Shown here piece by piece: positions 42,004-59,956 of a stretch of DNA of 64,000 nucleotides. The stretch comes from Candidatus Pelagibacter ubique HIMB058 (GTDB taxonomy: Bacteria; Pseudomonadota; Alphaproteobacteria; Pelagibacterales; Pelagibacteraceae). A program made the translations under genes and the position numbers. The stretch is taken from assembly GCA_000419545.1 (NCBI GenBank), contig ATTF01000003.1:1-64000 (forward strand). Direction: 5' to 3'. The notes below the pieces were generated by a model. That model was not told the DNA's origin, did no database searches, and was given only the letters and a program-made list of their open reading frames with translations. The stretch's first letter is position 1. Every line of letters begins with the position of its first letter.

Positions 42004-42056
42004 GTTAGATTTATACAATGCCCTAAAAAAAACTCAATTAATTATTAATTAACCAT

Positions 42057-42635: not shown

Positions 42636-42669
42636 GCAAAAAAAATAAATTAATATATAAACCGTAGCG

Positions 42670-43089: not shown

Positions 43090-43499
43090 GCAAATTAACT
43101 TCTTTAATTGCTGGAATAATATTTGGAATAGGTCTTACAATCTCTGAAATGATTAATCCTGAAAAAGTTTTAGGTTTTTTAAATTTATTTGGAGGTTGGG
43201 ATCCTTCTCTTGCTTTTGTGATGGTAGGAGCATTAGTAGTTACAACGCCATTTATTTTTATCTACAAAAAGCAAAAGCCTTTATTCGCAGAAAGTTTTTC
43301 ATTATCGCAAAAAAAAGATCTAGATAATAAACTTATCATAGGAGCAGTTTTATTTGGTGCTGGTTGGGGATTAGCAGGTTTATGTCCGGGGCCAGCCATT
43401 TCATCATTAGCGATAATGAATATAAGCTCTGTTATTTTTGTTGTTGCAATGTTTCTTGGATTTTATTTATCTAAATTTATAAATGTACAAAGTTCTTAA
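43086..43499 (+). CDS. YeeE/YedE family sulfur-compound transporter, half 2
   Basis: GIIFGIGLTISEMINPEKVLGFLNLFGGWDPSLAFVM; GAGWGLAGLCPGPAISSL. Confidence 0.9.
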   Translation: MSKLTSLIAGIIFGIGLTISEMINPEKVLGFLNLFGGWDPSLAFVMVGALVVTTPFIFIYKKQKPLFAESFSLSQKKDLDNKLIIGAVLFGAGWGLAGLCPGPAISSLAIMNISSVIFVVAMFLGFYLSKFINVQSS

Positions 43500-44796
43500 A
43501 AATAGTTGGGCTTTATTTGCTGGCTTTGCCATTCTAGCAACAGCTCACGGCTTTCAAGGAAATCTTTTAGGAGTTAGATCTGTAATAGAAGAATTTAATT
43601 ATCTTGCTACAGGATCATTAATGTCAGGATACTTTGTAGGATATTTCGTTGGAGCAAACTTAGTTCCTAATTTAGTTTCAAGAGTAGGGCACATCAGAGT
43701 TTTTGCGGCCGCCGCCTCATTAGCCTCATTAAGTTCATTGATACATGCAACTTTTGTTTTTCCAACAGTTTGGATCTTAGCAAGATTTTTAACTGGTTTT
43801 TCTATGATCGGAATATTTATCATAGTTGAGAGCTGGTTAAACGATAGAGCAAATAATAGAACAAGAGGACAGGTATTATCTCTTTATATGTTTATTACTT
43901 ACTTTGCTTTTGCAACAGGGAACATTTTACTTAACGTAAGTAGTCCGGTTAAGTATGAGCCTTTTATTTTAATTTCAATTTTATTCTCAGTTGCATTAGT
44001 TCCAATTCTATTAACGAAAAGAAAACCACCTAAATTTAAAAAAACAAGTTCAATGAAAATTAAAGAACTTTATAAAGCTTCACCCTTTGGAACTTTAGCA
44101 ATGCTATGCGTTGGATTTATTTATTCTGCAATTTTAACTTTATCTTCTGTGTATGCCACAAAGATGAACTTATCTATCTTTGAAGTTTCAATTTTATTAA
44201 TTTTAATAACATTAGCTGGTGCATTCTTTCAGTGGCCACTTGGATATATCTCAGACAAAATGGATAGAAGAAAAGTAATTATCGTAAGTGCTTTATTTGC
44301 AATAACATTTTCTATTTTAGCAATATTATTTTCAGGAACATCTTTACCTAATGCATTTACTCAAAATCTTACAAAATTTAATTACTTCTCAACTGCTTTA
44401 GATAAAGGAAAATTATTTATATTTGTTACGTTACTAGCAGGAACAACTTTAACCTTATTCCCAATTATACTTGCCTACGTTAATGACAATATTTCAAAAG
44501 ATAAGTTCGTAGCAGCTGGAGCTGGTTTAAATATTATTTTTGGATTGGGCGCTATGGGAGGACCAATACTATGCAGTTTGTCTATGCAGACATTTGGACC
44601 TAATGGTTTCTTTCTATATGTTATTTTCTTTCTATCTATTCTAACTTTATTTGGGATTTATAGAGTTAACGTTAATACCTATGAAGAAAACCCTGACTCA
44701 ACATTTACGGCCTTACCAAAAGACATAACTCCTCTAGGTATTGAACTTGATCCAGATACTGCTGTTGATTTATCTAATCAAGAAGTTAAAAACTAA
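43483..44796 (+). CDS. MFS transporter
   Basis: 437 aa, 12 TM; GYISDKMDRRKVIIVSALFA; overlaps YeeE half 2 by 17 nt. Confidence 0.88.
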   Translation: MYKVLKNSWALFAGFAILATAHGFQGNLLGVRSVIEEFNYLATGSLMSGYFVGYFVGANLVPNLVSRVGHIRVFAAAASLASLSSLIHATFVFPTVWILARFLTGFSMIGIFIIVESWLNDRANNRTRGQVLSLYMFITYFAFATGNILLNVSSPVKYEPFILISILFSVALVPILLTKRKPPKFKKTSSMKIKELYKASPFGTLAMLCVGFIYSAILTLSSVYATKMNLSIFEVSILLILITLAGAFFQWPLGYISDKMDRRKVIIVSALFAITFSILAILFSGTSLPNAFTQNLTKFNYFSTALDKGKLFIFVTLLAGTTLTLFPIILAYVNDNISKDKFVAAGAGLNIIFGLGAMGGPILCSLSMQTFGPNGFFLYVIFFLSILTLFGIYRVNVNTYEENPDSTFTALPKDITPLGIELDPDTAVDLSNQEVKN

Positions 44797-46042
44797 GGTA
44801 TTTTACCTCACCTATTTCTAGAGTGTCATAACGATCAAAAAATACTACGCTATCTCTAAAATAAGTTACTCTTCTTAATATTAGATCTACCTTTTTTTTA
44901 CCTTCTAGGTATTTTTTTAGTTCATCTACTGTCTTAATGGCATTACCATCAACTCTTAGAATAATATCTCTAGTTCTAAGTATTCCACTTGCTAGCCCAG
45001 CATCTATACTTTGTACAACTAAATGACCGTCTGAGTTAAACATTTCTTCAGAGACACCGGAATATGTATCAGAAAATTTATTCTCAATTAACGCATTAGA
45101 GACTATTAAACCCACTCTGTCACTGTATGAACCTTTAGACTTTAACTTCACATTTAAATTCATCTCTTTATTATTTCTCAAGATAGTAAGCTTAACCTCG
45201 TTTAGCCCTCTTGATTGTGTAGATAATTGTGTTGGATTTGAAACTTCGAAGTTATTTATAGATTTTACAATATCACCTACTTTTAGTTTTGAATCTTTAT
45301 TTAGGACTTTTGAAACTTTTAAGTGATTATCTAAGTTATCATTAGATGCAAATAAGACTTGAAAATTTAAAGGTGAAGGATCTTTACCTTCAGCTTGAAG
45401 CTCAATGATCTTACAAAAATGAATTGAAGGTACTGCAAAATTAAGTCCTTCAGTGTCATCTAAACCAAAAGAACTCATACCTATTACTTTTCCAGTAGCA
45501 ATACTAATCAAAGGCCCACCAGAGTTACCGGGGTTAATGGGAGTATCAGTTTGAATTGCCTCAAAGGTTGCCAACTTTTCATAACGTATTCCTGAAATTA
45601 TTCCTCTCGTTATTGTAAAATCTTTAGAGTAAGGATGACCAAAGGCAACAGTATTATCTCCTTGTTTGTAATTTTGCTTACAATCTATTTCAGCTTCAAT
45701 TGCGTTTTTAGGAATAAGATTAGGATCTACTTTTAAAATAGCAAAGTCTAATTCTTTATCTATGTAAACTTGTTCAGCAGAAATGGGACTTTCATTTTTA
45801 AAATTAACTCTATTCGTAGCTGGTGAAGAACCTGCTACATGAGAATTAGTTATAATAAGCCCTTCTTTTTTATTAACTAAAAAACCCGTACCTGATCCTG
45901 CATAACCATCACCGATAAATGGTTTAATAATAGAGTTTTGAATTTTAACTGTATATTTATTTGCCTTTTCTAAAATATCAGTAAGTGATGCAGCATATAG
46001 AGGCTGAATGGAAAATATTAAAATAACTATAAGTTTTTTCAT
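44786..46042 (-). CDS. Periplasmic trypsin-like serine protease with PDZ domain(s) (S1C/DegP-like)
   Basis: Signal peptide; ITNSHVAG, DFAILKV, TPINPGNSGGPLIS catalytic motifs; C-terminal PDZ-like repeats. Confidence 0.88.
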   Translation of the reverse strand: MKKLIVILIFSIQPLYAASLTDILEKANKYTVKIQNSIIKPFIGDGYAGSGTGFLVNKKEGLIITNSHVAGSSPATNRVNFKNESPISAEQVYIDKELDFAILKVDPNLIPKNAIEAEIDCKQNYKQGDNTVAFGHPYSKDFTITRGIISGIRYEKLATFEAIQTDTPINPGNSGGPLISIATGKVIGMSSFGLDDTEGLNFAVPSIHFCKIIELQAEGKDPSPLNFQVLFASNDNLDNHLKVSKVLNKDSKLKVGDIVKSINNFEVSNPTQLSTQSRGLNEVKLTILRNNKEMNLNVKLKSKGSYSDRVGLIVSNALIENKFSDTYSGVSEEMFNSDGHLVVQSIDAGLASGILRTRDIILRVDGNAIKTVDELKKYLEGKKKVDLILRRVTYFRDSVVFFDRYDTLEIGEVKYLSF

Positions 46043-46293
46043 TAATTATCCATTGAAAAGTATTTAGCTAGTTCTTCTTTGTGATACTTATAAATGTACC
46101 TATCAACAAGGTCCCAATACTTTTGTGATTTACTACTAATACCTCTTTTTAATAATTTTGTATGATAGTTTACAGCAGAATCAAAAACGAATTTATTATT
46201 TATAATTTTAATATTTATTCTTTCCCAGTTATCAGCTAGTTCGTTACAAAAATACTCGTTAACTTCATGCTCATTATATAAATTTATTTTCAT
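46042..46293 (-). CDS. Hypothetical protein
   Basis: 83 aa, 1-nt overlaps with both neighbours. Confidence 0.6.
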   Translation of the reverse strand: MKINLYNEHEVNEYFCNELADNWERINIKIINNKFVFDSAVNYHTKLLKRGISSKSQKYWDLVDRYIYKYHKEELAKYFSMDN

Positions 46294-46883
46294 TAATCTT
46301 TTTTATCTTTTTTTTTACTAAAAACTTTAAACCCTAGATAACCTATTGCTGCTCCTATAGGAGCTAAAACCCATCCTCCATTAACAGCAATCATTACCCC
46401 AGCTAATTTACCCGCAACTCCTAATGATCCACCTGCTACTGCACCTAGAGCAGCACCTGCACCTGCGCCAATCAATGGTTTTGAAACTGTTTTTTCTGCT
46501 AATTGAACAGGAGTGCTAGACTTTAATTTTTCTAACTTCTCTTTAGCTATTCTAATTTTCTCAAGTTTTTCTTGTTCTTCTTTCCTTATTTTTTCAATTC
46601 GTTCTTGTTCAATTTGTTTTAACTTTTTATTAATTGAAAAAATTACAAATAAAGACACTAAGATTAAGATTACAGGTCTGATGAGTATAAAGTTTACACC
46701 AAATACATCATCAGGAAATCTCTCTTTAAATTCTAAATAACTGAAATATTCGCTAGGTACATAGAATATTGAAATAATGATTAATACTGGAATAGAAGTA
46801 ATTAGAAAATTTGATTTTATTATATCAATTAGTTTTCCTAAAAATAGTTTAGTAGTAAAGAATTTTATTATTCCTTTAATCAT
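46293..46883 (-). CDS. Hypothetical membrane protein: two N-terminal TMs, coiled coil, glycine-zipper C-terminus
   Basis: KIRKEEQEKLEKIRIAKEKLEKL coiled coil; GAGAGAALGAVAGGSLGVAGKLAG glycine-rich segment. Confidence 0.7.
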   Translation of the reverse strand: MIKGIIKFFTTKLFLGKLIDIIKSNFLITSIPVLIIISIFYVPSEYFSYLEFKERFPDDVFGVNFILIRPVILILVSLFVIFSINKKLKQIEQERIEKIRKEEQEKLEKIRIAKEKLEKLKSSTPVQLAEKTVSKPLIGAGAGAALGAVAGGSLGVAGKLAGVMIAVNGGWVLAPIGAAIGYLGFKVFSKKKDKKD

Positions 46884-46885
46884 AT

Positions 46886-47275
46886 TTAGTTATCGAGAGG
46901 TCCTAAATCGTAATTGTGATTATATTCACAGCCACAAGCTTTACAAGAACATTTAATCCATCCACATTTTTTACATAGCGAGAAGGAAATAGAATTAATA
47001 TTTCTTTTACAATTATAACAGTGAGTTTTTCTCATTTTCTTTTTAGCATTTAATAATAAATCTATTTTTTTATCGTATAAACTTTTATCCTCAGAAGTAG
47101 GTTTTATAATTTGAGTTTTGACATAAAGAGTAAAAACTCCCATACGATCTTCTTTGAGCAGGTAAAGCCTTACTTCATTGTTTTTATCGATACCTTCTTG
47201 GTAATCTTTATCGTAAATAATTCCACCAAGATCTTTATGAACTCCAAAGAAAATATTGTCTTTAATTTTTTCCAT
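46886..47275 (-). CDS. Hypothetical zinc-ribbon protein
   Basis: CYNCKRNINSISFSLCKKCGWIKCSCKACGC; overlaps the cysteine desulfurase ORF by 14 nt. Confidence 0.7.
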   Translation of the reverse strand: MEKIKDNIFFGVHKDLGGIIYDKDYQEGIDKNNEVRLYLLKEDRMGVFTLYVKTQIIKPTSEDKSLYDKKIDLLLNAKKKMRKTHCYNCKRNINSISFSLCKKCGWIKCSCKACGCEYNHNYDLGPLDN

Positions 47276-48392
47276 TTAATTGACTTATTAATTCTTTTAA
47301 ATCATCAAAACTAGTTTCTCTCCCGAAACTTATTCGAAAAGACTCATCTATTTGTTGATCATTTAACTTTAAAGCAGTTAATACGTGAGATCTGGTAATA
47401 GTTCCTGATGTGCACGCGGAACCTGTTGACATTGCGATATGAGGCATTTGATTAAATAAAGCTAAAGCTTCTTTATTTTTTATTCTAATATTTAGATTAT
47501 TTGGAACTCTAGAGCTAACATCACCATTAATTTCAAAATCCATTTTTGATTTAATTAGCTCAGATAGCATTACAGATTTCAATTTCTTAAAGTGTTCATA
47601 ATACTGAATTTTATTTTTTTTTAAATCAGCGCAAGCTTCACCTAGTCCTACACAAAGAGCAGGAGATAATGTTCCACTTCTAATCCCCATTTCTTGCCCT
47701 CCACCATCTATCATTGGTTTTAAAATGTTCTTAATTGATTTTGATAAATATAAAGCACCTATTCCTTTTGGCCCATAAATTTTATGTCCTGATATAGATG
47801 CAGCATGTAAATTGAATAACTCAACATCAACCGAAGTTGTCCCTAATGATTGAGCAATGTCACTATGAAAGATAGCATTATATTTTTTACAAAGCTCACC
47901 TATTTCTTTTAATGGCTGCAGTACACCGATTTCATTGTTGGCATGCATAATACTGACTAAAGAAGGTTTTACTTTTAACAAGTTCTCTAAATCTTCAAGA
48001 TTTATTAAGCCTGCTTCATTTACATCTAGATAATGAACTTTAATGTTTTGTTGTTCTAAATAATAACAACTTTCAAGCACGCATTTATGCTCGGTCTTAC
48101 AAGTAATAATTTGAAAGTCAGTTGTAAAATAATTTTGAGCTATACTTTTAATGGCTAGATTATTTGACTCAGTTGCACCTGAAGTAAATACAATTTCGTT
48201 AGGTTCGGCATTGATTAGTTTAGCTACTTGTTCTCTTGTTTTTTCAACAACCTCGTTAGTTTCTCTTCCTAAAGAATGATTGTTTGAATGTGGATTTGCA
48301 AATTTCTCTGAAAAATAAGGTAGCATCTTTTTTAAAACTTTATCGCTTACGGGTGTTGTGCTTTGATAATCTAGAAATATTTTTTTGCTCAT
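47262..48392 (-). CDS. IscS/NifS-like cysteine desulfurase; candidate SspA/DndA
   Basis: LDYQSTTPVS, SGATESNNLAIKS, SGHKIYGPKGIGALYL (PLP Lys), STGSACTSG (catalytic Cys); divergent to the sspBCD-like operon. Confidence 0.93.
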   Translation of the reverse strand: MSKKIFLDYQSTTPVSDKVLKKMLPYFSEKFANPHSNNHSLGRETNEVVEKTREQVAKLINAEPNEIVFTSGATESNNLAIKSIAQNYFTTDFQIITCKTEHKCVLESCYYLEQQNIKVHYLDVNEAGLINLEDLENLLKVKPSLVSIMHANNEIGVLQPLKEIGELCKKYNAIFHSDIAQSLGTTSVDVELFNLHAASISGHKIYGPKGIGALYLSKSIKNILKPMIDGGGQEMGIRSGTLSPALCVGLGEACADLKKNKIQYYEHFKKLKSVMLSELIKSKMDFEINGDVSSRVPNNLNIRIKNKEALALFNQMPHIAMSTGSACTSGTITRSHVLTALKLNDQQIDESFRISFGRETSFDDLKELISQLNGKN

Positions 48393-48448
48393 TTAGGACT
48401 GATTCTGTTTTATTTTTGTTCTATTCTATAAACAACCTCTTAAAAATG

Positions 48449-48479
48449 TTGATAATATTACCTTTTTTAACATTATAAT
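48449..48479 (+). promoter_or_regulatory. Candidate promoter for the DUF4007-led operon
   Basis: TTGATA -19 nt- TATAAT in the 127-bp divergent intergenic region; an AATGTT/AACATT inverted repeat overlaps it. Confidence 0.4.
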
Positions 48480-48519
48480 TTACTATTCTATCTATATATT
48501 AGGAATTGGTAATTCTAAC

Positions 48520-49461
48520 ATGAATTTTACCAATTACACTATGTTAAGAGGACCTTTAGGAAAAGCAAAATATAAACCGAAATTTTCAGGGCATGACACT
48601 TTCCCTTTTAGATATGCATGGCTAACAAAGATTGCCCATTATTTAGAAGAGGGTGATGTTAAAAAAATCAAAGAATTTGAACGATATAAACTGCAAACCA
48701 TGTCTGAGTTCGGCGTTGGTTTAAACATGGTTAAAAGCATGAGACACTGGTCTCTTGCAACAAAGGTATGTGATAAAAATTTTGGGTTAACTGATTTTGG
48801 TAAGTTTATTTTTTCAAAAAAAAAGGCCGCAGATCCTTATTTAGAAAAAAATGAAACACTTTGGTTGTTGCATTGGATGATTGCTAGCGACTCTAGCTTA
48901 ACAACATGGTTTTATCTATTTAACTATCATCCTTCAATAATTGTTAACCGTGAACAAGTGGCAAATGAATTATTACAAATAGGTAAATTCTCTAAGTGGA
49001 AAGGTATCAGCCCTAATACAATTAAAAGAGATGTAGATTGTTTTATAAGAACGTATTTAGTTTCACATAAGAAAGGTGAAATTACGGAAGATAGTATTGA
49101 ATGTCCATTAGCAGAGTTAGGACTATTACAACAAACATATACTAAAAATGAGTTCGAGCTTCATAAAGGGCCTAAATCAAGTTTAAGCCAAGGTATATTT
49201 GAATTCGCACTAAATGATTATTGGTCTAAACAAAATAATCAAATAATTACATTTGAAAAATTAATGTATGACTATGGATCACCTGGAAAAGTATTTCAGC
49301 TAGATGAAAAATCATTAGAAGAGTACCTTGATAACATGGGTCAAAGTGCTAATAAAATTTTTCAATTTGATAAAGGAGCAGGTGGTTTAAGACAAATATC
49401 AAAAATTAAAGATGTTAAACAAAGCCAATTATTAAGTAACTGCTACAGGAGAGTTGCTTAA
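48520..49461 (+). CDS. DUF4007 family protein; candidate SspB-like component
   Basis: FSGHDTFPFRYAWLTKIAHYL, FGVGLNMVKSMRHWSLATKV, DPYLEKNETLWLLHWMIASD are DUF4007 hallmarks. Confidence 0.85.
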   Translation: MNFTNYTMLRGPLGKAKYKPKFSGHDTFPFRYAWLTKIAHYLEEGDVKKIKEFERYKLQTMSEFGVGLNMVKSMRHWSLATKVCDKNFGLTDFGKFIFSKKKAADPYLEKNETLWLLHWMIASDSSLTTWFYLFNYHPSIIVNREQVANELLQIGKFSKWKGISPNTIKRDVDCFIRTYLVSHKKGEITEDSIECPLAELGLLQQTYTKNEFELHKGPKSSLSQGIFEFALNDYWSKQNNQIITFEKLMYDYGSPGKVFQLDEKSLEEYLDNMGQSANKIFQFDKGAGGLRQISKIKDVKQSQLLSNCYRRVA

Positions 49462-52400
49462 TGGATTTATTTAATTACCAAAATCAAAATATTAAAAATC
49501 ATTTTCAAAGATCCACAAGAATTGACAATGATCTAACTAAAGATTTTTTAGATCATTTTATTTTTCATTCCACAGGAAAAAAAGTTCTTAATCAAATTAC
49601 TTCCTCAATTAATAATTCAAATCAATGCGCATTTACATTAACAGGACCTTACGGTACAGGAAAAAGCTCACTCGCCCTTTTTTTACAAGCATTACTAAGC
49701 AGTGATAGCAAAATAAAAAAACAAGCAACTCAAATAGCTAACTTCTCTAAGACATCTGGATTTACAAAATTATTTCTTAAAAAAAAATGGTTTATCATAA
49801 AAATTATTGGATCAAAAAATGATCCATTAGAAAGTTTAGCTGAAACTATCGATCAAACTGTAAAAGAGAAATGGATTTCTAAAGGAATACTATCTGCACT
49901 TAAAACAAGAACTAAACCAAAAATTAATAATATAATCGAAAAATTAAAAACACTTACAGAAGAATTAGAGAAAAAAAATTATGCGCTATTAATTTTAGCT
50001 GATGAGATGGGAAAGTTTCTTGACTATTCTTCAAGCGTTGGTTCTGACTTAAATTTATTTCAAGAAATTGCGGAAAATTTTTCAAATCTTAAATTAAATA
50101 AAAAAGGCTTACCTATCTTTGCTGGTATTCTTCATCAACCTTTTGAAGAATACGCATCGAACCTAGGAAGATCAGTTCAAGAAGATTGGCAAAAAGTTCA
50201 AGGGAGGTTTGAAGATATTCCTTTTTCTATTAATGCCGAAGAAAGCATTAACCTTATTTCATCAGCTATAAATGCTAAAAATAAAGCATTCCCAGAGGCG
50301 CGTAAAAATTGTGAGATTGTAGCTAAAGCCATTAATGGAAAAAAAAATAATATTTTATCGCAAGGTTTAATAAAAGCTTACCCTCTTCACCCTGTTGTAA
50401 CATTATTGTTAGGCCCTATTTCTAAACAACGTTTTGGGCAAAATGAAAGATCTATATTTACCTTTCTTAATTCAGGGGAAAGCTTTGGCTTTTTAAGTTT
50501 TATTAATGACGACAAAACAAAACCTAAAACAGTTTACACGCCAGACTTATTATTTGATTACTTATCAAATAATCTTGAACCAAGTATTTTAGCTTCAAAT
50601 TTAGGTCATGCTTGGTCAGAAGCATCAGAAGCTATTCGTAGGGCAGAAACTTTAGATGACGCAGAAAGCATCAAGTTAGCTAAGAGCATTACGTTAATAG
50701 ATCTTTTTGGAAAAAATATATCACTCAATGCAAGTAAAGAAGTGTTAGCGACATGCTTAAGTTCAAAAGCTAATATAACTAAAAAACTTGAAGAACTTGA
50801 AAAGAAGAAAGTTGTAATCTTTAGGAAATTCAAAAAAGCCTATGCTTTATTTTCTGGTTCAGATATTGATTTAGATGATTTAACTAAAATTAATAAACAA
50901 AAAATTGTTGATGATCATGAGATTATTTTATCTCAACTCCCAGCTCTTACCCCAGCAATTGCAAAAAAACATTTTCACGAAACAGGAACTCAAAGATTAT
51001 TTCAAAAATTTTGTATTGTACTTTCTTCTGTTAAAAAAGCAGTAGAAGACATAATTAGATTAGATATTTCAAAAATTAGCGCGGGTTCATTTGTATATGT
51101 AATAAAAAATAATGCTGATAGCAAAAAAGAATTTGAAGATAAATTTGTAGAACTATCTAAAATAAAGTTTCCTAAACCAACAATATTAGGTTTTAGCAAA
51201 GGAGAAAGCGAATTCGTTGGTTATGCTCTTGAAATAGCATCTCTTAAAAGAGTTAGAACAACTGTAAGTGCAATAGAAGGAGATGCAGTTGCTAAGAAAG
51301 AATTAACAGGAAGATTAAATGCTTATCAAAATCTTCTAATTACTGCTTTACAAAATAATTTTGAGCAGGCTGATTGGTATTTTAATAATCTAAAATTAAA
51401 AAAAGATAATCTTTCAACTATTGCCTCAGCTGTAAGCTCACAAGTATTTCACCAAACACCTATTTTACATAATGAGCTAATCAACAGAGAAAAACTATCT
51501 ACTAGTGCAGTTTCAGGATCGTTGAACCTTATTATGAGAATTTTTAATTCTAGCGACAAGGAAGATTTAGGTATGGAGTCTCATCCGGCTGAATACGGAA
51601 TGTATTTATCTTTAATTAAAAAAAATAATTTACACATAAAAACAAAAGACGGATATCAATTAGCTAAACCTTCTAAAGATAATATTGGTCTTTATCAGTT
51701 GTATAATCTGTTCAATGATTATTTAAAAAATAAAAAAGAACCTGTAAGTGTTCAGGAAATTTTTAATATTTTTTCTGCTCAACCTTATGGTGTTAAGACA
51801 GGAATTTTGCCTTTACTTGTAAGTTTATTTTATAAAATTAACGAAGGCTCGTTGGCTCTTTACAATATTGATGAAACTGGAAGAGAGTCCTTAATTACAG
51901 AGCACACTCAACAAATAGCGGAAAAGTTTTACCAATTGCCTGAAGATATTAAGATCATGCATGTAAAAATTGAGGGTGAAAAGCAAGAGATACTTAATAG
52001 CTTTAAAGATTATGTTGAACAAAACTATCTTAAGAAAAAGATTGAAAACCCAACGCCTTTAAATGTTTTGAAACCTTTAGTTCTTCGTGCTTATAATCTT
52101 CCAACCTTTGCCAAGAAAACTAGAGCTTTTAAAAACAAAAAAGTAATGATGTTAAGAGATGAATTAATTAGCTCTCAAAATCCTTATGAACTTCTTTATA
52201 AAAAAATACCTGTAATTTGTGATGAGAAAAATCCAAAAGAATTAGTGACGGTATTTAAATCAATATTTAATGAACTAGATCAAGTTTATCAAAATATGAT
52301 CGAGAACATGAAAAGTACTATTTTAGATGTATTCAAAACGGACAGAAATATTTCAGATATTGATTTTGAGACAGTTAAAAATTGGGCTGAAAAAGTAGGC

Positions 52401-52838
52401 GAAAATGATCCTTTCTCTGCTAGGTATAAGGAATTTGAAAGTGAGCAAGAATGGATCGAACAGATAATATCTTATGCAGCAGCAAAACCTGCTAATGAAT
52501 GGACAGATAAAGATTATGATCAAGCAGTACTAAAAGTAGAGGACATGGTTAGACACTTTATAATGTCTTACCGATTATATAATCTTAGACAACAACACAG
52601 TGATACAAAGATTATCGATATAGCTATCTTTGAAGGAAAAAAACCTACGAGGTCATCAAAATTTTATAAATTTGACCCAAAAAATAATTCATCAGTAGAA
52701 AAAATTACTTCAGAAGTTTTATCTTTGTTAAATAGAGAAGAAATATCTGAGTCCGAAAAAGGTGAAGTTGTTTTGAATGTTCTTAAGAAAATTATGAAGT
52801 TTGAAAACACTAAAAAAGAAAAGAAAGATACTGCATGA
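49461..52838 (+). CDS. Large P-loop ATPase (1125 aa); candidate SspC-like component
   Basis: Walker A LTGPYGTGKSSLALFL, Walker B ALLILADEMGKFL; 1-nt overlap with the DUF4007 gene, 4-nt overlap with the PP-loop gene. Confidence 0.85.
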   Translation: MDLFNYQNQNIKNHFQRSTRIDNDLTKDFLDHFIFHSTGKKVLNQITSSINNSNQCAFTLTGPYGTGKSSLALFLQALLSSDSKIKKQATQIANFSKTSGFTKLFLKKKWFIIKIIGSKNDPLESLAETIDQTVKEKWISKGILSALKTRTKPKINNIIEKLKTLTEELEKKNYALLILADEMGKFLDYSSSVGSDLNLFQEIAENFSNLKLNKKGLPIFAGILHQPFEEYASNLGRSVQEDWQKVQGRFEDIPFSINAEESINLISSAINAKNKAFPEARKNCEIVAKAINGKKNNILSQGLIKAYPLHPVVTLLLGPISKQRFGQNERSIFTFLNSGESFGFLSFINDDKTKPKTVYTPDLLFDYLSNNLEPSILASNLGHAWSEASEAIRRAETLDDAESIKLAKSITLIDLFGKNISLNASKEVLATCLSSKANITKKLEELEKKKVVIFRKFKKAYALFSGSDIDLDDLTKINKQKIVDDHEIILSQLPALTPAIAKKHFHETGTQRLFQKFCIVLSSVKKAVEDIIRLDISKISAGSFVYVIKNNADSKKEFEDKFVELSKIKFPKPTILGFSKGESEFVGYALEIASLKRVRTTVSAIEGDAVAKKELTGRLNAYQNLLITALQNNFEQADWYFNNLKLKKDNLSTIASAVSSQVFHQTPILHNELINREKLSTSAVSGSLNLIMRIFNSSDKEDLGMESHPAEYGMYLSLIKKNNLHIKTKDGYQLAKPSKDNIGLYQLYNLFNDYLKNKKEPVSVQEIFNIFSAQPYGVKTGILPLLVSLFYKINEGSLALYNIDETGRESLITEHTQQIAEKFYQLPEDIKIMHVKIEGEKQEILNSFKDYVEQNYLKKKIENPTPLNVLKPLVLRAYNLPTFAKKTRAFKNKKVMMLRDELISSQNPYELLYKKIPVICDEKNPKELVTVFKSIFNELDQVYQNMIENMKSTILDVFKTDRNISDIDFETVKNWAEKVGENDPFSARYKEFESEQEWIEQIISYAAAKPANEWTDKDYDQAVLKVEDMVRHFIMSYRLYNLRQQHSDTKIIDIAIFEGKKPTRSSKFYKFDPKNNSSVEKITSEVLSLLNREEISESEKGEVVLNVLKKIMKFENTKKEKKDTA

Positions 52839-53686
52839 CAAAGACAAGACATGTTTTAGGATTAAGTGGTGGTAAAGATAGCGCAGCCTTAGCTATTCAT
52901 ATCGATAAAAATTATCCAGATATTCCAGTAGAATATTTTTTTACTGATACAGGTTATGAGCTTCAAGAAACTTATGACTTTTTAAATAAATTAAAGACAA
53001 GACTAAAAAAACCAATTCACTATATTAAACCTAAAAATAATTTTGATTATTATATGAAAAAATATAATAATTTTCTTCCTTCAGCCACTGCAAGATGGTG
53101 CACGATTGAGATGAAGTTGAAACCTTTTGAAAATTGGATCAAAGATAGCTTAAAAGAGGGAACAGAAATTATTACTTATGTAGGAATACGCTTCGACGAA
53201 AGAGGAAGAGTTGGTTACAAGCCAACCAATCCATTAATAAAAGCGAAGTTCCCATTTATAGATGACATGATCGATAGAGAAGGAGTAATTTCTATATTAG
53301 AAGACTCAGGATTAGGTTTGCCTGATTATTATAAATGGAGATCAAGATCAGGTTGTTCGTTTTGCTTCTTTCAAAGAAAAATTGAATGGGTAGGTCTAAA
53401 AGAAAATCATCCAGAGAAATTTGCTTACGCTAAAAAATTAGAGAAGAATGCCAAAGATCACGAGAGCCCATTTACATGGAATCAACGAGAGTCCCTTGAA
53501 GAATTAGAGCAACCGGAAAGAGTAGCTAAAATTAAATCTAATTATGAAAAACAATTAGAAAATTTAAGACAAAAAAAAGCAGATAAAATAAAAAACAATC
53601 CTTTTTTGAAAGACGAAGAAATTATTGTTGATGATAATATCGCCAATGATGATGTCTCAAGTTCTTGTCTAATTTGTCACAAATAA
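52835..53686 (+). CDS. PAPS reductase-like PP-loop ATP pyrophosphatase; candidate SspD/DndC-like
   Basis: LGLSGGKDSAALAIHI PP-loop; ARWCTIEMK; SGCSFCFFQRK; C-terminal CLIC (possible Fe-S ligands). Confidence 0.9.
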   Translation: MTKTRHVLGLSGGKDSAALAIHIDKNYPDIPVEYFFTDTGYELQETYDFLNKLKTRLKKPIHYIKPKNNFDYYMKKYNNFLPSATARWCTIEMKLKPFENWIKDSLKEGTEIITYVGIRFDERGRVGYKPTNPLIKAKFPFIDDMIDREGVISILEDSGLGLPDYYKWRSRSGCSFCFFQRKIEWVGLKENHPEKFAYAKKLEKNAKDHESPFTWNQRESLEELEQPERVAKIKSNYEKQLENLRQKKADKIKNNPFLKDEEIIVDDNIANDDVSSSCLICHK

Positions 53687-53689
53687 TTT

Positions 53690-54658
53690 ATGTCCAAATA
53701 CCCTTTTAGTTTAGAGAGAAGTAATCTTCTTGGAACAGAAGCCTTTAGGAATTTATTAGGTGAAAGTTTAAGAGATGCTAAAGAACAAGTCATAATTTTT
53801 ACCGCTTATATTAAAATGATAGGAGTTGAGTGGTTAGAAAAACAATTAACAAACAAAAATGTTAAGTGCGTGGTAGTTTCTAGGTGGGAAAAAAGTGATC
53901 TTGCCCAAGGCTCTTCAGATTTAGAATGTTATGAAGTTTGTAAAAAAAATAATTGGCAATTTAAAATTTTAAATGATTTGCATGCAAAACTAATGTTAGT
54001 GGATAACAAAAGTTTATTTATAGGAAGCCCAAACTTAACTGGAAAAGGTATGAGTTTAGTTCCTGTTTCAAATAAAGAAATGGGTATTAAAGTTACAGCT
54101 ACAGACACAGATACAAAGATTATTAGCAGCTTATTAGAAGAAGCAATTTTAATTAACGAAGATATTTATTCTAACTTAAAGGAGTGGAAGAAAAATTTGC
54201 CTGAGATCAAAAAGACTGTTTACCCAGACTTTCCTGAAACATTAAAAACCAAACTAAGAGAAAATTTAGATAAGATTTGGGTTCACAACTTCCCTTGGTC
54301 TAAAGCAGAAGATTTATTAAATTTAAGAGAAAACAATGAAAATGTAAAACATGACTTAATTTTACTTGGTTTAAAAACACAAGAAAGAAACAAGGACATC
54401 ATCAAATCAAATTTCAAAATTTCTAAAGTCTACAAGTGGTTCTTAAATCAATTAAAAAAACAAAAAAAAGAAGAAATATTTTTTGGAGAACTATCATCGA
54501 TAATTCATGATTCTTTGCTAGATGATCCAACGCCCTACAGACAAGATGTCAAAAAATTACAAGTTAATTTTTTGTCTTATTTGAAATTATTTTTGCAAGA
54601 TGAAATTAAAGTTGATACTCCTTATAAAAAATCAGAGCGAATAATTTTAATAAAATGA
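53690..54658 (+). CDS. Phospholipase D-family (single HKD) nuclease-like protein
   Basis: HKD motif HAKLMLVDNKSLFIGSPNLTGKG. Confidence 0.85.
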   Translation: MSKYPFSLERSNLLGTEAFRNLLGESLRDAKEQVIIFTAYIKMIGVEWLEKQLTNKNVKCVVVSRWEKSDLAQGSSDLECYEVCKKNNWQFKILNDLHAKLMLVDNKSLFIGSPNLTGKGMSLVPVSNKEMGIKVTATDTDTKIISSLLEEAILINEDIYSNLKEWKKNLPEIKKTVYPDFPETLKTKLRENLDKIWVHNFPWSKAEDLLNLRENNENVKHDLILLGLKTQERNKDIIKSNFKISKVYKWFLNQLKKQKKEEIFFGELSSIIHDSLLDDPTPYRQDVKKLQVNFLSYLKLFLQDEIKVDTPYKKSERIILIK

Positions 54659-56418
54659 ATTTAGATAAGTTAAAACTTGAAAATATTTTACTGCAATTAG
54701 GAGACGAGATTTTAATAAAAGTTATTGGAAAACAAAGAATAAAAACTTTGTCAAAACTCACTAATAAATCGATAAACTCTATAATGATGGTAGAGTTATT
54801 AAAAAAGAGGTTGGGTAATCAAATTTTTTCAGACTCAATACTTAGAGGAAATATAATTTTTTCACTTAAAGAGGAATATAAATCATACTTATTTTACGGA
54901 GATGAAAGTAAAACAATTGATCAAGAAGATTTAAAAAAAATGATTAATGCATCTTGGGATAGAAGGTTTAATTATTTTAAGCGTCTAATAGAAATTTTTG
55001 ATTTAGATGAAAGTTATTTACCAGAAATACCCTATCATAGAGAACAGGATATTATTGTAGAGTCAAAAAATCAGAACAGTTCTAATAATTTAAACTTTTT
55101 TCAAAAAATTTTAAGAAAAATAAAATTGATATTTCAAAAAATTTTTAGGTTTTTTTTTAATAAAAAAGAATTATCAAACAATTCTAATTTATTTGATTTT
55201 CAAAACAGGGTTAAGAACAAGATTTTAAAAGCTATATCAAACAATATTAAAAGAATGATTATTCATATGCCCACGGGTTCGGGAAAAACAAGAACTACGA
55301 TTTCTTCAATAATTGATTTAATGAATAATAAAAATAACTATACCGCAGTTTGGTTAGCACACACTGATGAATTATGTGAACAGGCGATCGAAACATTCAC
55401 AAATTTATGGAGCCTAGAAGGAAAAGGAATATTAAAAATTTCTAGATTAGATAAGAATTTAAAATTAGAATTAAACAATAATAAAAACTTAATTGTATCA
55501 ACTTATCAAAAATTATCATCTATGAGGACTGGATCAGAGGAAAAAATAAGAGTTTTAGAATCACTTAGAAGAAATTTATCGATAATAATTGCAGATGAGG
55601 CACACATGTTACCCGCAGAGACTTTTAATGACTCAATAAACTTTTTAGACAGTGTAAGTGGAACTTTTATAATTGGTTTATCAGCAACACCCGGTAGAGG
55701 AGTTATAGAAAAACAAAATCAGCAACTAGCAAATTTCTTCAATAAATTTAAAATAACTATAACAAATGAAGAAGACAAAGAACTTGAAGATCCTATTAGA
55801 TATTTACAAGAAAGAAAAATTTTAGCAAATATAAAGGCATTTAATATTGCTACAAATTTTAATTTTGAACTAAGTGATGATCAAAAATTAAATATATTAA
55901 ATAATTTTCAAATTAATGATTTAATAATTAAACAAATGGAAAAAGATGAAGAGAGAAACCTTTGTATAATTTCTCATCTCATCGATCTTGTGAACAAAGG
56001 AAAATCAACTATCGTTTTTGCTTGTTCTTTAGAACATTCAAAATTATTGAATGAAGTATGTATCTTATTAGATATCAAATGTGCTTCAATCGATGATAAA
56101 ACTTCATTTAATAGTAGAAAAAAATTTATAGAAGATTTTAAAAACAAAAAAATAGATATCATTTTTAATTACGGAGTTCTCTCAACGGGATTTGATGCAC
56201 CAAATACAAATGCTATTATGATTGCTAGACCAACTGCTTCACCGATTATGTACTCTCAAATGCTTGGAAGAGGTTTAAGAGGGAGTGAAGTAAATGGGAA
56301 TGATGAATGCTGGTTAATAGACCTAAAAGATAATTTAAAAGGTTTACCAGATGAGAGAAATTGTTTTACACTTTATAATCAATATTATAACAAAATAGAA
56401 AATTATAATTTAAATTAA
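54655..56418 (+). CDS. Superfamily II DEAD/DEAH-type helicase
   Basis: HMPTGSGKTRTTISS, IIADEAHMLPA, LSATPGRG, STGFDAPNTNAIMIARPTASPIMYSQMLGRGLRG. Confidence 0.93.
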   Translation: MNLDKLKLENILLQLGDEILIKVIGKQRIKTLSKLTNKSINSIMMVELLKKRLGNQIFSDSILRGNIIFSLKEEYKSYLFYGDESKTIDQEDLKKMINASWDRRFNYFKRLIEIFDLDESYLPEIPYHREQDIIVESKNQNSSNNLNFFQKILRKIKLIFQKIFRFFFNKKELSNNSNLFDFQNRVKNKILKAISNNIKRMIIHMPTGSGKTRTTISSIIDLMNNKNNYTAVWLAHTDELCEQAIETFTNLWSLEGKGILKISRLDKNLKLELNNNKNLIVSTYQKLSSMRTGSEEKIRVLESLRRNLSIIIADEAHMLPAETFNDSINFLDSVSGTFIIGLSATPGRGVIEKQNQQLANFFNKFKITITNEEDKELEDPIRYLQERKILANIKAFNIATNFNFELSDDQKLNILNNFQINDLIIKQMEKDEERNLCIISHLIDLVNKGKSTIVFACSLEHSKLLNEVCILLDIKCASIDDKTSFNSRKKFIEDFKNKKIDIIFNYGVLSTGFDAPNTNAIMIARPTASPIMYSQMLGRGLRGSEVNGNDECWLIDLKDNLKGLPDERNCFTLYNQYYNKIENYNLN

Positions 56419-58193
56419 TGTTTAAAAAATCTACTTCAAATAACAGACCACCAATCGTTCCAGTTAAAACTGCTATTAATGCATTTATTGCCTCCGGTTA
56501 CAAAAGCACCTCAGCAGCTGTCTCAGAAATTATAGATAACTCTATTGAGGCAGAAGCTAAAAACATAGAATTAATTGTTTTTGATGAACTAAATAATAAG
56601 GGAATAAAAAAAATAAAAAAAATTGTAATGGTTGATGACGGTATTGGAATGGATGAAAACACTTTAGCTAAAAGTTTACAATTTGGAAATGGGTCGAGAT
56701 TAGAGTCAAGAAAAAGCTTAGGTAGATTTGGAATTGGTCTCCCAAATTCCTCTGTTAGTCAATGCAATAGAGTAGATGTTTACTCATGGAGAAATAATAA
56801 GACATTACATACTTACTTAAGTGTTGATGAGATTAATAAAAATGACAATCAAAATATTAATGAAATAAAAGAAAACGAGCTTCCAAATGAGATTAAAAAA
56901 GAGATTAATAGTCTAGGAAAAAACGGGACAGTAGTAATATGGTCAGATTGTGCAAGATTAGATGTAGCGAAGGCAGAAACTCTCTATAATAGGATCACAA
57001 AAGATATCAGCAGAACTTATAGATACTTTTTAGATAAAAAAAATAAGAAATTTAAAACAATCAACATCACTTACAAAATTGCGAATAGCGAATACTTAAA
57101 AAGTTTTAAACCCAATGATCCTATGTACCTTATGGAAAATTCCACAACTCCTGATTATGAAAAGCAGGCTATTATGGCTTTACGGACAAAAGACGATGAT
57201 AACAATGAGGGAAATATTGAAGTAAAAATACAAGATCCATTAACTGGGAAAGACGTAAAAGCAAATGTCACTTTTAGATATTCTTCTATTAAGCCAGAAA
57301 TTTATAATAAAGAGAGAAACGCAACTAGTAAATTCATGACTCATTTAAAAAGAAATCAAGGTATATCTTTTGTACGTGCTGGAAGAGAGATAGATTTTGG
57401 AACATTTGAATTTTTCGATCCCTCTCAAACTACAGAGAGATGGTGGGGGTGTGAAATAATGTTTGATCCTATACTAGATGAAGTTTTTGGTGTTTCAAAT
57501 AATAAACAAGGTGTAAAGAATATGAATTATTTAGACGTTACACAAAAAAAAGATTTAGATATATCTGATGAAGAGATTAACGAAAGTCCTAAGTTATTAT
57601 TAAGACAAGAAATATCAAAACGTTTTAAAAAATTTAAAGATAGTTATCAAAAAAAACGTAATCAGATATTAAAAGATACTCCTGATAAAGGAAATAGAGC
57701 TAAGACGACTTTTGATGAGGTGGTTAAAGGAAGAAAAGTTGTTACAAATTCTAAAATTCTTGGCGCTGGAAAAAGTGAAACACAAAAGACAAATGAATGG
57801 AAAGAATTAATAAAAAAAAGAGCTGAAGCTGCTGGTCAAAGTTTAACACCTAAGCAAATAGATGACTTAATCAAGGATAACAAGTCACTAGAAGTTTCAA
57901 TCGAAAAAGGAAGCTGGGAAGCAAACCAGTTTTTTACTATTGAAGTAACAGGTGCTACAGCAGTAATAAAAGTTAATACATCTCATCCATTTTATGAAAT
58001 GATGTATAAACCTTTAGAAGAAAGTGATGATAAGAAAATTACAGAAGTACTCGATTTGCTCTTAATGTCATGGGCAAGGCTCGAAGACGAACTTGTAGTC
58101 AAAGACATTGAACAAAAAGATTTCAGTAAAATCAGAGATAGATGGGGACAACATCTACTAGATACGTTAGATAAACTAAATAAACTAAATTAA
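56418..58193 (+). CDS. GHKL ATPase, MORC/MutL-like
   Basis: N box AVSEIIDNSIEA, G1 MVDDGIGMDE, G2 GRFGIGLPNSSVSQ. Confidence 0.88.
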   Translation: MFKKSTSNNRPPIVPVKTAINAFIASGYKSTSAAVSEIIDNSIEAEAKNIELIVFDELNNKGIKKIKKIVMVDDGIGMDENTLAKSLQFGNGSRLESRKSLGRFGIGLPNSSVSQCNRVDVYSWRNNKTLHTYLSVDEINKNDNQNINEIKENELPNEIKKEINSLGKNGTVVIWSDCARLDVAKAETLYNRITKDISRTYRYFLDKKNKKFKTINITYKIANSEYLKSFKPNDPMYLMENSTTPDYEKQAIMALRTKDDDNNEGNIEVKIQDPLTGKDVKANVTFRYSSIKPEIYNKERNATSKFMTHLKRNQGISFVRAGREIDFGTFEFFDPSQTTERWWGCEIMFDPILDEVFGVSNNKQGVKNMNYLDVTQKKDLDISDEEINESPKLLLRQEISKRFKKFKDSYQKKRNQILKDTPDKGNRAKTTFDEVVKGRKVVTNSKILGAGKSETQKTNEWKELIKKRAEAAGQSLTPKQIDDLIKDNKSLEVSIEKGSWEANQFFTIEVTGATAVIKVNTSHPFYEMMYKPLEESDDKKITEVLDLLLMSWARLEDELVVKDIEQKDFSKIRDRWGQHLLDTLDKLNKLN

Positions 58194-59956
58194 TTAATTT
58201 TTTTTATTTCTTCTATTGCTTTAGGGTAAGAAATAATTGTTAAATCCCCTCTAGCTCTTGATAGACCTGTATATATTTTTTGTATATTCTCTTTATTCAC
58301 TTCTTTAAAATTTACTAGTATTACTGCTCTTTTTTCAAGACCTTTGAAACTTCTTATGTCAGAAAATGTTATGTCATTTTCTTCTTTAGGGTCGATGTAT
58401 GGCAGAGAGTACTCGTAAGCTCCAATAACCTTACAGCCTAATTTATTTAATTCTTTAGTCATTGAAGTTGTTGAATTGTTAGCACTAGGTCTCATGCTAT
58501 CTACACCAAGAACCGCAATATCTTTTGGTTTGAATTTATCAACTTCTATTAAGTGTTTAATCTTTTTAACCGTTTTATGCACTATTTCATCAAAAGAATT
58601 AGCTTCTACAAGTTCTATCTCTCTTCCTAAATTAGATTTACTATGCTTTGAATAAAATAAATTAATTTCAGGAAAATACTTTTTGATTAGCTTTGATAAA
58701 AAATTACTGATCATAGAACTATTTCTGTAATTGGCATTAAAATTAAACATAGGAAAATTAATTTTAGCTGGTTCTCTTAATATCTCACTCATACTCTCTT
58801 CAATTGTAGTCTGAAGAGGATCGTAGAAGAAAAATAATTTACCATCATCTTTAATAATTGTATTTAAGGCACTAAACCAATTTTTATTAAAATCTTGTGC
58901 TTCATCGACTATAACTAAATCAAATTTTTCATCAGGAAATTTTTCAAATAAGCTTGTACACATTTGAGGAGTGTAAACATCGAAATGCTCTCTAAGTTCA
59001 TCAGCTGTTGCTCCCCGCTTTACATTATTCATTGTAAAACTTAATCTGTCTGCTGTTTGTTTTATAAATTGATCAATGGAATAAATTCTAAAGTTTTTTG
59101 AAGATCTGTCTGAATTTCTAGATAATATTTTTAAAAACTGACAAAGGCCTTTTGTCTTAGTTAAAATTAAAACTTTTTTATCATCATAAATAGGGTTACA
59201 GGCAATTTTAGCAGCAATAATAGTTTTACCTGTCCCAGCTAATCCTTCAATAATCATTTTTTGATTTTGAAACACTGATAGTAGAAATGATTGTTGATCT
59301 TGATCAAATTCAAGATCTTGTGCATGCTCTCCGTATTTTACAATGTGTTTAAACGGACTCTCAAGATCATCTCCATAAAGAAATTTTCTAATATATTTTT
59401 TTTCATTATCCCCCATAGGATATTCATTCCTATTAAGGTCAAATAATTTATTTAAAGATTGCTCCAAATTTTGAAAATCTTCTGCCCAGATAAGCATCTC
59501 AGGTTTAATGTCTTGACCAGTAAATCCTATTGGTCTTGGTGTATTAGGAAAAATTGCACCGCAAACTGTTATTAATGAATCAACATTAACTACTTTTGAT
59601 AAAATTTTAAGAAGTTTGTATTTTCCGTCTGTTGCTTGAGCTATGGGGTCTTTATTAAGAACTTTGTTATTTTGATACCATTTTTTTTCAGTGGCATTAA
59701 AGGTTATATTTCCTCCCTTACACTCTAGGAACATCATTCCTTTTGTAGGATGTAGAATAATAAAATCACTGTATTCTCCTTCTCTCAAACTACCAAATTT
59801 ATTTCTGTAAATAAATTTAGGACCACAAAGAACCTCAACTTGATCGTCAAAACTATCTGCTAATTTTTTGTAAACCTCGTATTCAGTCTGTCTTCCTTTT
59901 TTTTCCATTTCGTCAGTACCTAGATATGGAAAGATTGAAGGAAAAATTTTACTCAT
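58190..59956 (-). CDS. NERD-domain / UvrD-like SF1 helicase
   Basis: N-terminal NERD-type region (GREGEYSDFIILHPTKGMMFLECKG-like); GLAGTGKTIIAAKIA; LVIVDEAQDF; NANYRNS; IRSFKGLEKRAVILV; YTGLSRARGDLTI. Confidence 0.9.
   Translation of the reverse strand: MSKIFPSIFPYLGTDEMEKKGRQTEYEVYKKLADSFDDQVEVLCGPKFIYRNKFGSLREGEYSDFIILHPTKGMMFLECKGGNITFNATEKKWYQNNKVLNKDPIAQATDGKYKLLKILSKVVNVDSLITVCGAIFPNTPRPIGFTGQDIKPEMLIWAEDFQNLEQSLNKLFDLNRNEYPMGDNEKKYIRKFLYGDDLESPFKHIVKYGEHAQDLEFDQDQQSFLLSVFQNQKMIIEGLAGTGKTIIAAKIACNPIYDDKKVLILTKTKGLCQFLKILSRNSDRSSKNFRIYSIDQFIKQTADRLSFTMNNVKRGATADELREHFDVYTPQMCTSLFEKFPDEKFDLVIVDEAQDFNKNWFSALNTIIKDDGKLFFFYDPLQTTIEESMSEILREPAKINFPMFNFNANYRNSSMISNFLSKLIKKYFPEINLFYSKHSKSNLGREIELVEANSFDEIVHKTVKKIKHLIEVDKFKPKDIAVLGVDSMRPSANNSTTSMTKELNKLGCKVIGAYEYSLPYIDPKEENDITFSDIRSFKGLEKRAVILVNFKEVNKENIQKIYTGLSRARGDLTIISYPKAIEEIKKIN

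What the first reader, a model, noticed from the sequence alone, without database searches (positions are those of the whole stretch)
47262..59956. Candidate SspABCD-type phosphorothioation island with PLD nuclease, SF2 helicase and MORC-like GHKL ATPase
Seen in sequence: an IscS-like cysteine desulfurase (-) diverges from a six-gene + strand operon of DUF4007 protein, large P-loop ATPase, PAPS-reductase PP-loop protein, single-HKD PLD protein, SF2 helicase and GHKL ATPase. Gene junctions overlap by 1-4 nt or are 3 nt apart. A NERD-UvrD helicase converges on it. Established knowledge: cysteine desulfurase plus a DndC-like PP-loop enzyme is the sulfur-transfer core of Dnd and Ssp DNA phosphorothioation, and SspABCD pairs with restriction modules SspE or SspFGH. 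Inference: desulfurase/DUF4007/ATPase/PP-loop = SspABCD-like, and the next three genes = a restriction module possibly equivalent to SspFGH. I cannot verify SspFGH domain identities here. If they differ, this is a new restriction partner set.
Basis: partly seen in the sequence, partly recalled or inferred. Interest (0 to 1): 0.93.

Follow-up and report, generated by a model that had tools for sequence, protein, structure and literature searches.

The report
Sulfur-DNA defence with MORC-type restriction trio
This is a bacterial anti-virus gene island that very probably marks its own DNA with sulfur and pairs that mark with a recurring but apparently unnamed three-gene attack module (a DNA-cutting PLD nuclease, a DNA motor and a MORC-like ATPase), which may account for many of the sulfur-marking systems whose weapon is still unknown.

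Summary
In detail: sspA (-) diverges from an unbroken + strand operon sspB-sspC-sspD-PLD-SF2 helicase-GHKL at 47262-58193, and a NERD-UvrD helicase converges on it. SspA-D identity is strong (PADLOC E 1e-86 to 2e-276; SspB crystal structure E 3e-24). The other three genes are not SspFGH or SspE. They form a distinct trio: a PLD/HKD nuclease, a RadD/SauUSI-like SF2 motor and a MORC-like GHKL ATPase. The trio recurs beside sspBCD in at least 10 phyla. Of 54 loci found through the GHKL protein, 45 carry sspB, sspC and sspD, and all 54 carry the helicase. In 398 Pseudomonadota genomes, all 8 full-length GHKL homologues lie in sspD-bearing genomes, within about 10 kb of sspD (P = 9e-14). Among 41 complete sspBCD loci found through SspD, 18 have the trio and 6 have SspFGH. 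A 2021 study could assign no partner to 84% of sspBCD loci, and this trio fills a large part of that gap. I propose a third Ssp restriction module: an ATP-driven PLD nuclease gated by a MORC-type clamp. Whether phosphorothioate blocks it or triggers it is not decided. The chemistry and the anti-phage activity are inferred and untested.

The parts
47262..48392 (-). sspA, IscS/DndA-type cysteine desulfurase (376 aa)
   Evidence: PADLOC SspA 1.7e-137; Aminotran_5 5e-77; matches the solved 'SspA complex protein' 6m4j at 1e-68
48393..48519 (.). 127-bp divergent intergenic region, presumed promoters of sspA and of the sspBCD-trio operon
   Evidence: Position only; promoters not tested
48520..49461 (+). 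sspB, DUF4007 protein (SspB is a DNA-nicking enzyme in the studied systems)
   Evidence: PF13182 3.5e-74; PADLOC SspB 1.8e-86; SspB crystal structure 6juf 3.2e-24
49461..52838 (+). sspC, large BrxC-related P-loop ATPase
   Evidence: PADLOC SspC 2.1e-276 over residues 9-1055, BrxC 1.7e-72; Walker A GPYGTGKS
52835..53686 (+). sspD, PAPS-reductase-like PP-loop sulfurtransferase with a C-terminal CxxC tail
   Evidence: PADLOC SspD 4.7e-119; SGGKDS and tail motif
53690..54658 (+). trio gene 1: single-HKD PLD-family nuclease with a C-terminal helical domain
   Evidence: PLDc_2 2.8e-10; H98, K100, S113, N115, T117, N128, E130 invariant in 36 homologues; model pLDDT 90, best folds NucT, Zucchini, Nuc
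54655..56418 (+). trio gene 2: SF2 helicase-like DNA motor (RadD/SauUSI/PbeA-like)
   Evidence: ResIII 6.9e-27; RadD model 1.6e-34; PbeA 2.6e-26 over residues 163-545; profile against PDB RadD 1.1e-39, 7clg 4.8e-21
56418..58193 (+). trio gene 3: MORC-like GHKL ATPase (GHKL + S5-like + helical and alpha/beta C-terminal part)
   Evidence: HATPase_c_3 4.1e-24; profile against PDB: MORC2/3/4 best, 7.5e-10; model pLDDT 88, matches MORC2, SMCHD1, MutL
58190..59956 (-). converging NERD-UvrD helicase; neighbour, probably a separate defence gene
   Evidence: NERD 2.3e-06; PADLOC RTasNERD-Hel 2e-52; almost never found at related loci
46886..47275 (-). 129-aa zinc-finger-like ORF overlapping the 3' end of sspA, possibly co-transcribed; membership uncertain
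   Evidence: Repeated CxxC motifs; no homologue in any of the related loci

Best explanation
The island encodes an Ssp-type DNA phosphorothioation system with a third, apparently unnamed restriction module. SspA takes sulfur from cysteine and SspD transfers it to the DNA backbone at sites chosen by the SspB nickase and the SspC ATPase (inferred by homology to studied systems). The PLD-SF2-GHKL trio is the attack arm. The PLD protein is a dimeric nuclease that makes one active site per dimer, the SF2 protein is an ATP-driven DNA motor, and the MORC-like GHKL protein is an ATP-gated clamp that loops or grips DNA and licenses cleavage (inferred from folds, motifs and the CglI, SauUSI and MORC analogues). 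The most likely logic is restriction of DNA that lacks the sulfur mark, with the mark acting as a self tag. Shown here: gene identities, intact catalytic motifs, operon structure, and recurrent linkage of the trio to sspBCD across phyla. Not shown: sulfur in DNA, nuclease activity, phage defence, and the sign of the coupling. The stated confidence is for SspABCD plus a functionally coupled restriction trio; for the 'attacks unmarked DNA' step alone it is about 0.55.
For: Strong SspA-D matches. Linkage: sspBCD plus SF2-GHKL-PLD lie together on plasmids of Bacteroidota, Cyanobacteriota, Alphaproteobacteria and Spirochaetota. Of 54 GHKL loci with at least 7 kb on both sides, 45 have SspB+C+D, 54 have SF2 and 34 have PLD. 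In 398 Pseudomonadota genomes, all 8 full-length GHKL homologues occur in sspD genomes on the same contig (P = 9e-14). Of 41 complete sspBCD loci found through SspD, 18 carry the trio and 6 carry SspFGH. The trio evolves as a unit (GHKL-SF2 distance correlation 0.95, with PLD 0.67-0.70), SspB-C-D evolve as another unit (0.83-0.95), and the two are more loosely coupled (0.32-0.51): exchangeable modules of one system. The active sites are conserved. PLD plus SF2 is an established nuclease-motor pair in CglI (PMC5737866), SauUSI (PMC7913695) and PbeA (PMC6459918). MORC-SF2-nuclease operons are established in restriction-modification contexts (PMC2292703).
Against: No experiment. A few GHKL-SF2 pairs occur without sspBCD; at least two of these Chloroflexota genomes have no SspD, and the pairs lack PLD. 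Nine of the 54 loci replace PLD with an unrelated protein and have a helicase without a DEAH box, so the chemistry is not uniform. Nothing here shows whether the mark blocks or triggers the trio: SspFGH attacks unmarked DNA, whereas SspE and PbeABCD need the mark (PMC8092258, PMC6459918).
Confidence: 0.82

Rival explanations
1. Same parts, opposite logic: the trio is inactive until it senses phosphorothioate in host DNA, like SspE or PbeABCD, and then stops phage replication.
For: SspE and PbeABCD, the latter with a PLD-SF2 protein, both depend on the mark and are not toxic without it (PMC6459918, PMC8092258). The trio helicase's best PADLOC match is PbeA.
Against: SF2-GHKL pairs in genomes without SspD lack the PLD gene, which fits a nuclease that is dangerous without the mark. 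This is weak evidence.
Confidence: 0.35
2. Two independent defence systems that merely share a defence island.
For: Defence genes cluster, and the window island is a 22-kb insertion relative to two relatives. The modification and trio modules have partly separate histories.
Against: Translationally coupled operon. 45 of 54 GHKL loci have all of sspB, sspC and sspD. In Pseudomonadota all 8 full-length GHKL homologues co-occur with sspD. Chance sharing would give many trio loci beside other systems.
Confidence: 0.07
3. The trio is a distant SspFGH.
For: Three genes, at least two predicted ATPases (GHKL, SF2), same position next to sspBCD.
Against: No PADLOC SspE/F/G/H hit, although PADLOC's SspH model fires on real SspH. 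Different domains. Some loci carry both SspFGH and a trio variant, for example L008, L031-L033 and L052, so they are separate entities.
Confidence: 0.02
4. The trio is mainly a repair or anti-oxidation accessory of phosphorothioated DNA and not a restriction module.
For: The helicase resembles the repair helicase RadD and the GHKL fold resembles MutL.
Against: Mobile, plasmid-borne, patchy distribution; it occupies the slot held by SspFGH or Pbe modules elsewhere.
Confidence: 0.06

Closest known systems
SspABCD-SspFGH (Vibrio anguillarum FF-93)
   Same: Same modification genes; a three-gene partner with ATPases beside sspBCD
   Different: SspF/G/H (Walker-A protein, protein without known domain, FtsK-like) are unrelated to PLD, SF2 helicase and GHKL
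SspABCD-SspE
   Same: Same modification genes
   Different: SspE is one DUF262-DUF1524 nickase; the own genome has no SspE match
DndCDEA-PbeABCD
   Same: PT system with a PLD (HKD) nuclease plus SF2 helicase as the attack arm
   Different: PbeA fuses PLD and SF2 and works with an ABC ATPase (PbeC) and DndE-like PbeD; here PLD and SF2 are separate genes and a MORC-like GHKL protein stands in the ATPase slot
MORC/paraMORC restriction-modification operons (Iyer 2008)
   Same: GHKL ATPase, SF2 helicase and nuclease, sometimes HKD, in one operon
   Different: Those pair with DNA methylases; this one pairs with DNA sulfur modification. The passages read do not mention phosphorothioation
CglI / NgoAVII and SauUSI
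   Same: PLD-fold nuclease driven by an SF2 motor; in CglI separate subunits, as here
   Different: No GHKL subunit and no phosphorothioation; CglI and SauUSI use sequence- or methyl-recognition domains
BREX type 4
   Same: DUF4007, PAPS reductase and BrxC/SspC homologues
   Different: Needs PglZ and BrxL, which are absent here

Membership tests
Ssp phosphorothioation module (SspABCD) | SspA-type cysteine desulfurase | tested here: met
   PADLOC SspA 1.7e-137; 6m4j 1e-68; note that DndA scores equally
Ssp phosphorothioation module (SspABCD) | SspB (DUF4007) | tested here: met
   PADLOC 1.8e-86; 6juf 3.2e-24
Ssp phosphorothioation module (SspABCD) | SspC ATPase | tested here: met
   PADLOC 2.1e-276, full length
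Ssp phosphorothioation module (SspABCD) | SspD PP-loop enzyme | tested here: met
   PADLOC 4.7e-119, SGGKDS
Ssp phosphorothioation module (SspABCD) | Phosphorothioate in DNA (C-PS-CA in studied systems) | not testable with these tools
   Needs LC-MS/MS or iodine cleavage
SspFGH | SspF, SspG, SspH homologues | tested here: not met
   No hit for the trio; SspH model works on L105
SspE | DUF262-DUF1524 SspE homologue | tested here: not met
   PDLC02783 finds nothing in the window's own genome
PbeABCD | Fused PLD-SF2 PbeA with PbeC ABC ATPase | tested here: not met
   PLD and SF2 are separate genes; helicase-only partial PbeA hit, no PbeC hit
MORC/paraMORC R-M operon | GHKL with MORC-like N-terminus plus SF2 helicase plus nuclease | tested here: met
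MORC/paraMORC R-M operon | Linked DNA methylase as the modification | tested here: not met
   No methylase in 44786-59956; sspBCD stands in that place
BREX type 4 | PglZ and BrxL | tested here: not met
   No PADLOC PglZ or BrxL hit in the island
DISARM | DrmA/DrmB with DrmC | tested here: not met
   Only weak DrmC hits through the generic PLD domain, no DrmA or DrmB

The most novel reading that the evidence does not exclude
A widespread third class of Ssp restriction module in which a bacterial MORC-type ATPase reads a sulfur mark on the DNA backbone and gates an SF2-driven PLD nuclease. It would be the commonest known partner of sspBCD and would link MORC ATPases to an epigenetic mark other than methylation.
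Probability: 0.55. Interest if true: 0.85.

Novelty: new variant of a known kind. Interest (0 to 1): 0.72.

Why it matters
Wang et al. 2021 found that 2,211 of 2,678 sspBCD loci had neither SspE nor SspFGH and asked whether other restriction partners exist. The trio gives that question a concrete answer that can be tested in one plasmid experiment, and it is commoner than SspFGH in the SspD-anchored sample here. It also gives a bacterial MORC homologue tied to a backbone mark, a simple setting for asking how MORC ATPases respond to DNA modification. Going by its models, the detection library used here (PADLOC-DB 2.0.0 of 2023) would show these loci as sspBCD without a named partner.

Tried and rejected
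SspFGH homology: rejected by domain content and PADLOC (PMC8092258). DISARM through DrmC: only the generic PLD domain scores, no DrmA or DrmB. BREX-4: no PglZ or BrxL. NERD-UvrD helicase as a member: almost no linkage elsewhere. The 129-aa zinc-finger ORF as a conserved member, prompted by the desulfurase-linked zinc finger of BREX-4 (PMC12839542): no homologue in any related locus. Viral contigs with the GHKL protein: nothing; phage records: only two weak partial matches. Rfam: no match in the window. Seeking prior description: searches for Ssp with GHKL, MORC, PLD or DUF4007 found no paper that describes this trio with Ssp. Subscription papers and preprints were not searchable.

Full report
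OBSERVATION. The NERD-UvrD gene, 58190-59956 (-), overlaps the end of the GHKL gene by 4 nt. All reading frames and catalytic motifs are intact.

MODIFICATION HALF. All four proteins match their Ssp namesakes: PADLOC SspA 1.7e-137 (DndA scores equally), SspB 1.8e-86, SspC 2.1e-276 along residues 9-1055, SspD 4.7e-119. SspB matches the solved SspB 6juf at 3.2e-24. SspD carries SGGKDS and ends in a CxxC tail shared by distant homologues. That SspABCD-type genes make single-stranded phosphorothioates is established for other members (PMC8092258) and is inferred here.

ATTACK HALF. The remaining three proteins match no SspE, SspF, SspG or SspH model, although the SspH model gives E = 0 on a true SspH of another locus. 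The published SspFGH proteins are a Walker-A protein, an unassigned protein and an FtsK-like protein (PMC8092258). The trio is instead: (i) a single-HKD PLD protein whose H98, K100, S113, N115, T117, N128 and E130 are invariant in 36 homologues, with a model (pLDDT 90) closest to NucT, Zucchini and Nuc; (ii) an SF2 motor closest to RadD and to the PLD-helicase structure 7clg, which I take to be SauUSI, and to PbeA; (iii) a GHKL ATPase whose profile finds human MORC2, MORC3 and MORC4 first among solved structures and whose model (pLDDT 88) matches Hsp90, MORC2, SMCHD1 and MutL.

RECURRENCE. Translated search of plasmids with the GHKL protein gave 38 records, 18 of them covering at least 80% of the query. 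Inspected neighbourhoods in Hymenobacter, Roseobacter, Geminocystis, Trichormus, Planktothrix, Pannonibacter, Mesorhizobium, Treponema and Cyanobacterium HL-69 carry ssp genes with helicase, GHKL and PLD (profile scan). A scan of 85,462 species genomes found 274 relatives; the best 80 were fetched. Of the 54 with at least 7 kb on both sides, 45 have SspB+C+D, 3 have two, 2 have one and 4 have none; SF2 is in all 54 and PLD in 34. By record titles they span Pseudomonadota, Actinomycetota, Cyanobacteriota, Chloroflexota, Bacteroidota, Spirochaetota, Bacillota, Armatimonadota, Acidobacteriota, Gemmatimonadota and others.

INDEPENDENT DIRECTION. To avoid choosing loci by the GHKL gene, I searched SspD in samples of four phyla, fetched the surroundings and scanned them. 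Complete sspBCD loci, with the genomes that were reached through GHKL and the window left out: Pseudomonadota trio 7, SspFGH 3 of 12; Cyanobacteriota trio 7, SspFGH 2 of 14 (one trio, L122, is seen whole in L006, the same 55,266-bp plasmid); Bacteroidota trio 4, SspFGH 1 of 13; Actinomycetota 0 of 2, plus one trio beside a truncated sspBCD. Total trio 18, SspFGH 6 of 41. In the same 398 Pseudomonadota genomes, full-length GHKL homologues occur in 8, all of them with SspD on the same contig; Fisher P = 9e-14. SspE was not counted in this census.

MODULARITY. In 57 loci with all six genes, pairwise distances correlate at 0.95 for GHKL-SF2, 0.67-0.70 with PLD, 0.83-0.95 within SspB-C-D, and 0.32-0.51 between the two groups. 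These behave as two cassettes that usually travel together and sometimes swap. Other sspBCD loci hold PbeA plus PbeC, PglZ or SspFGH in the partner position.

MECHANISM. PLD nucleases such as BfiI and R.CglI form one active site per dimer. In CglI a PLD nuclease and a separate SF2 ATPase form R2H2 and cut after ATP-driven translocation (PMC5737866); in SauUSI the two are fused, and target recognition starts translocation and shredding (PMC7913695). Iyer et al. proposed that MORC-type GHKL proteins loop DNA between recognition and cut sites (PMC2292703). By analogy, the SF2 motor and GHKL clamp would survey DNA and the PLD dimer would cut DNA that lacks the sulfur mark. This is inference. The opposite sign, activation by the mark as in SspE and PbeABCD, is not excluded. 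Two Chloroflexota genomes with SF2-GHKL pairs have no SspD and the pairs lack the PLD gene, which fits the protective reading weakly; a third genome (L068) has PLD but no SspD match.

HOST AND MOBILITY. The genome is about 1.1 Mb at about 30% GC. Among 151 genomes searched (this one and its relatives) only this one has SspD. In two same-genus genomes the syntenic genes run from window position 39065 directly to 61283 with about 2 kb between them, so the system sits in a 22-kb insertion.

NOVELTY. GHKL-SF2-HKD operons with methylases have been known since 2008 (PMC2292703). The phosphorothioate and BREX surveys of 2024 and 2026 do not mention GHKL or MORC. No held paper found here describes this trio with Ssp. 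Prior description in a subscription paper cannot be excluded. I class it as a new variant of a known kind.

Noticed in passing
window 39061-61283: A 22-kb stretch absent at the syntenic place in two same-genus genomes (L151, L152); the ssp island is part of this insertion.
   Followed up: partly
window 40348-43499: Sulfur-handling genes near the island: beta-lactamase-rhodanese fusion, 1-Cys peroxiredoxin, YeeE/YedE sulfur transporter halves. May or may not bear on sulfur supply.
   Followed up: no
window 46886-47275 and 46293-46883: A 129-aa zinc-finger-like ORF overlapping the end of sspA and a 196-aa membrane protein; no homologues at related loci.
   Followed up: partly
L100, L113, L140, L141, L144, L146: sspBCD beside a PbeA-like helicase and a PbeC-like ABC ATPase: PbeA confirmed by PADLOC in L100, PbeC in L100, L113, L140 and L144; the rest inferred from matching layout. 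An Ssp-Pbe pairing, where Pbe was described with Dnd.
   Followed up: partly
L121 (cyanobacterium): sspBCD, a DndB-like gene and sspA lie between Cas12k and TnsB genes, so the phosphorothioation genes look like cargo of a type V-K CRISPR-associated transposon.
   Followed up: no
L008, L011, L031-L034, L038, L043, L046, L051, L052, L060, L081, L093: A trio variant in which the helicase has lost its DEAH box and PLD is replaced by an unrelated ~360-aa protein; some of these loci also carry SspFGH.
   Followed up: partly
L040, L048, L054, L061 (Chloroflexota): SF2-GHKL pairs without PLD or ssp genes; in L048 next to rhamnose-catabolism genes, with a similar layout in the others.
   Followed up: partly
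G858, G803, G820, G828 (small cyanobacterial genomes of about 2 Mb): Three to seven SspD-like genes per genome, without sspB or sspC nearby in the two loci examined (L132, L133).
   Followed up: no
L139, L143, L147 (Bacteroidota): sspBCD with other GHKL-type or unassigned large proteins (601 aa and 820-832 aa), possibly further partner sets.
   Followed up: no
L097: sspBCD facing a protein with DndH/SspH-like segments that is neither standard.
   Followed up: no
window 53690-58193: Gene order PLD-SF2-GHKL, whereas almost all other loci have SF2-GHKL-PLD.
   Followed up: no
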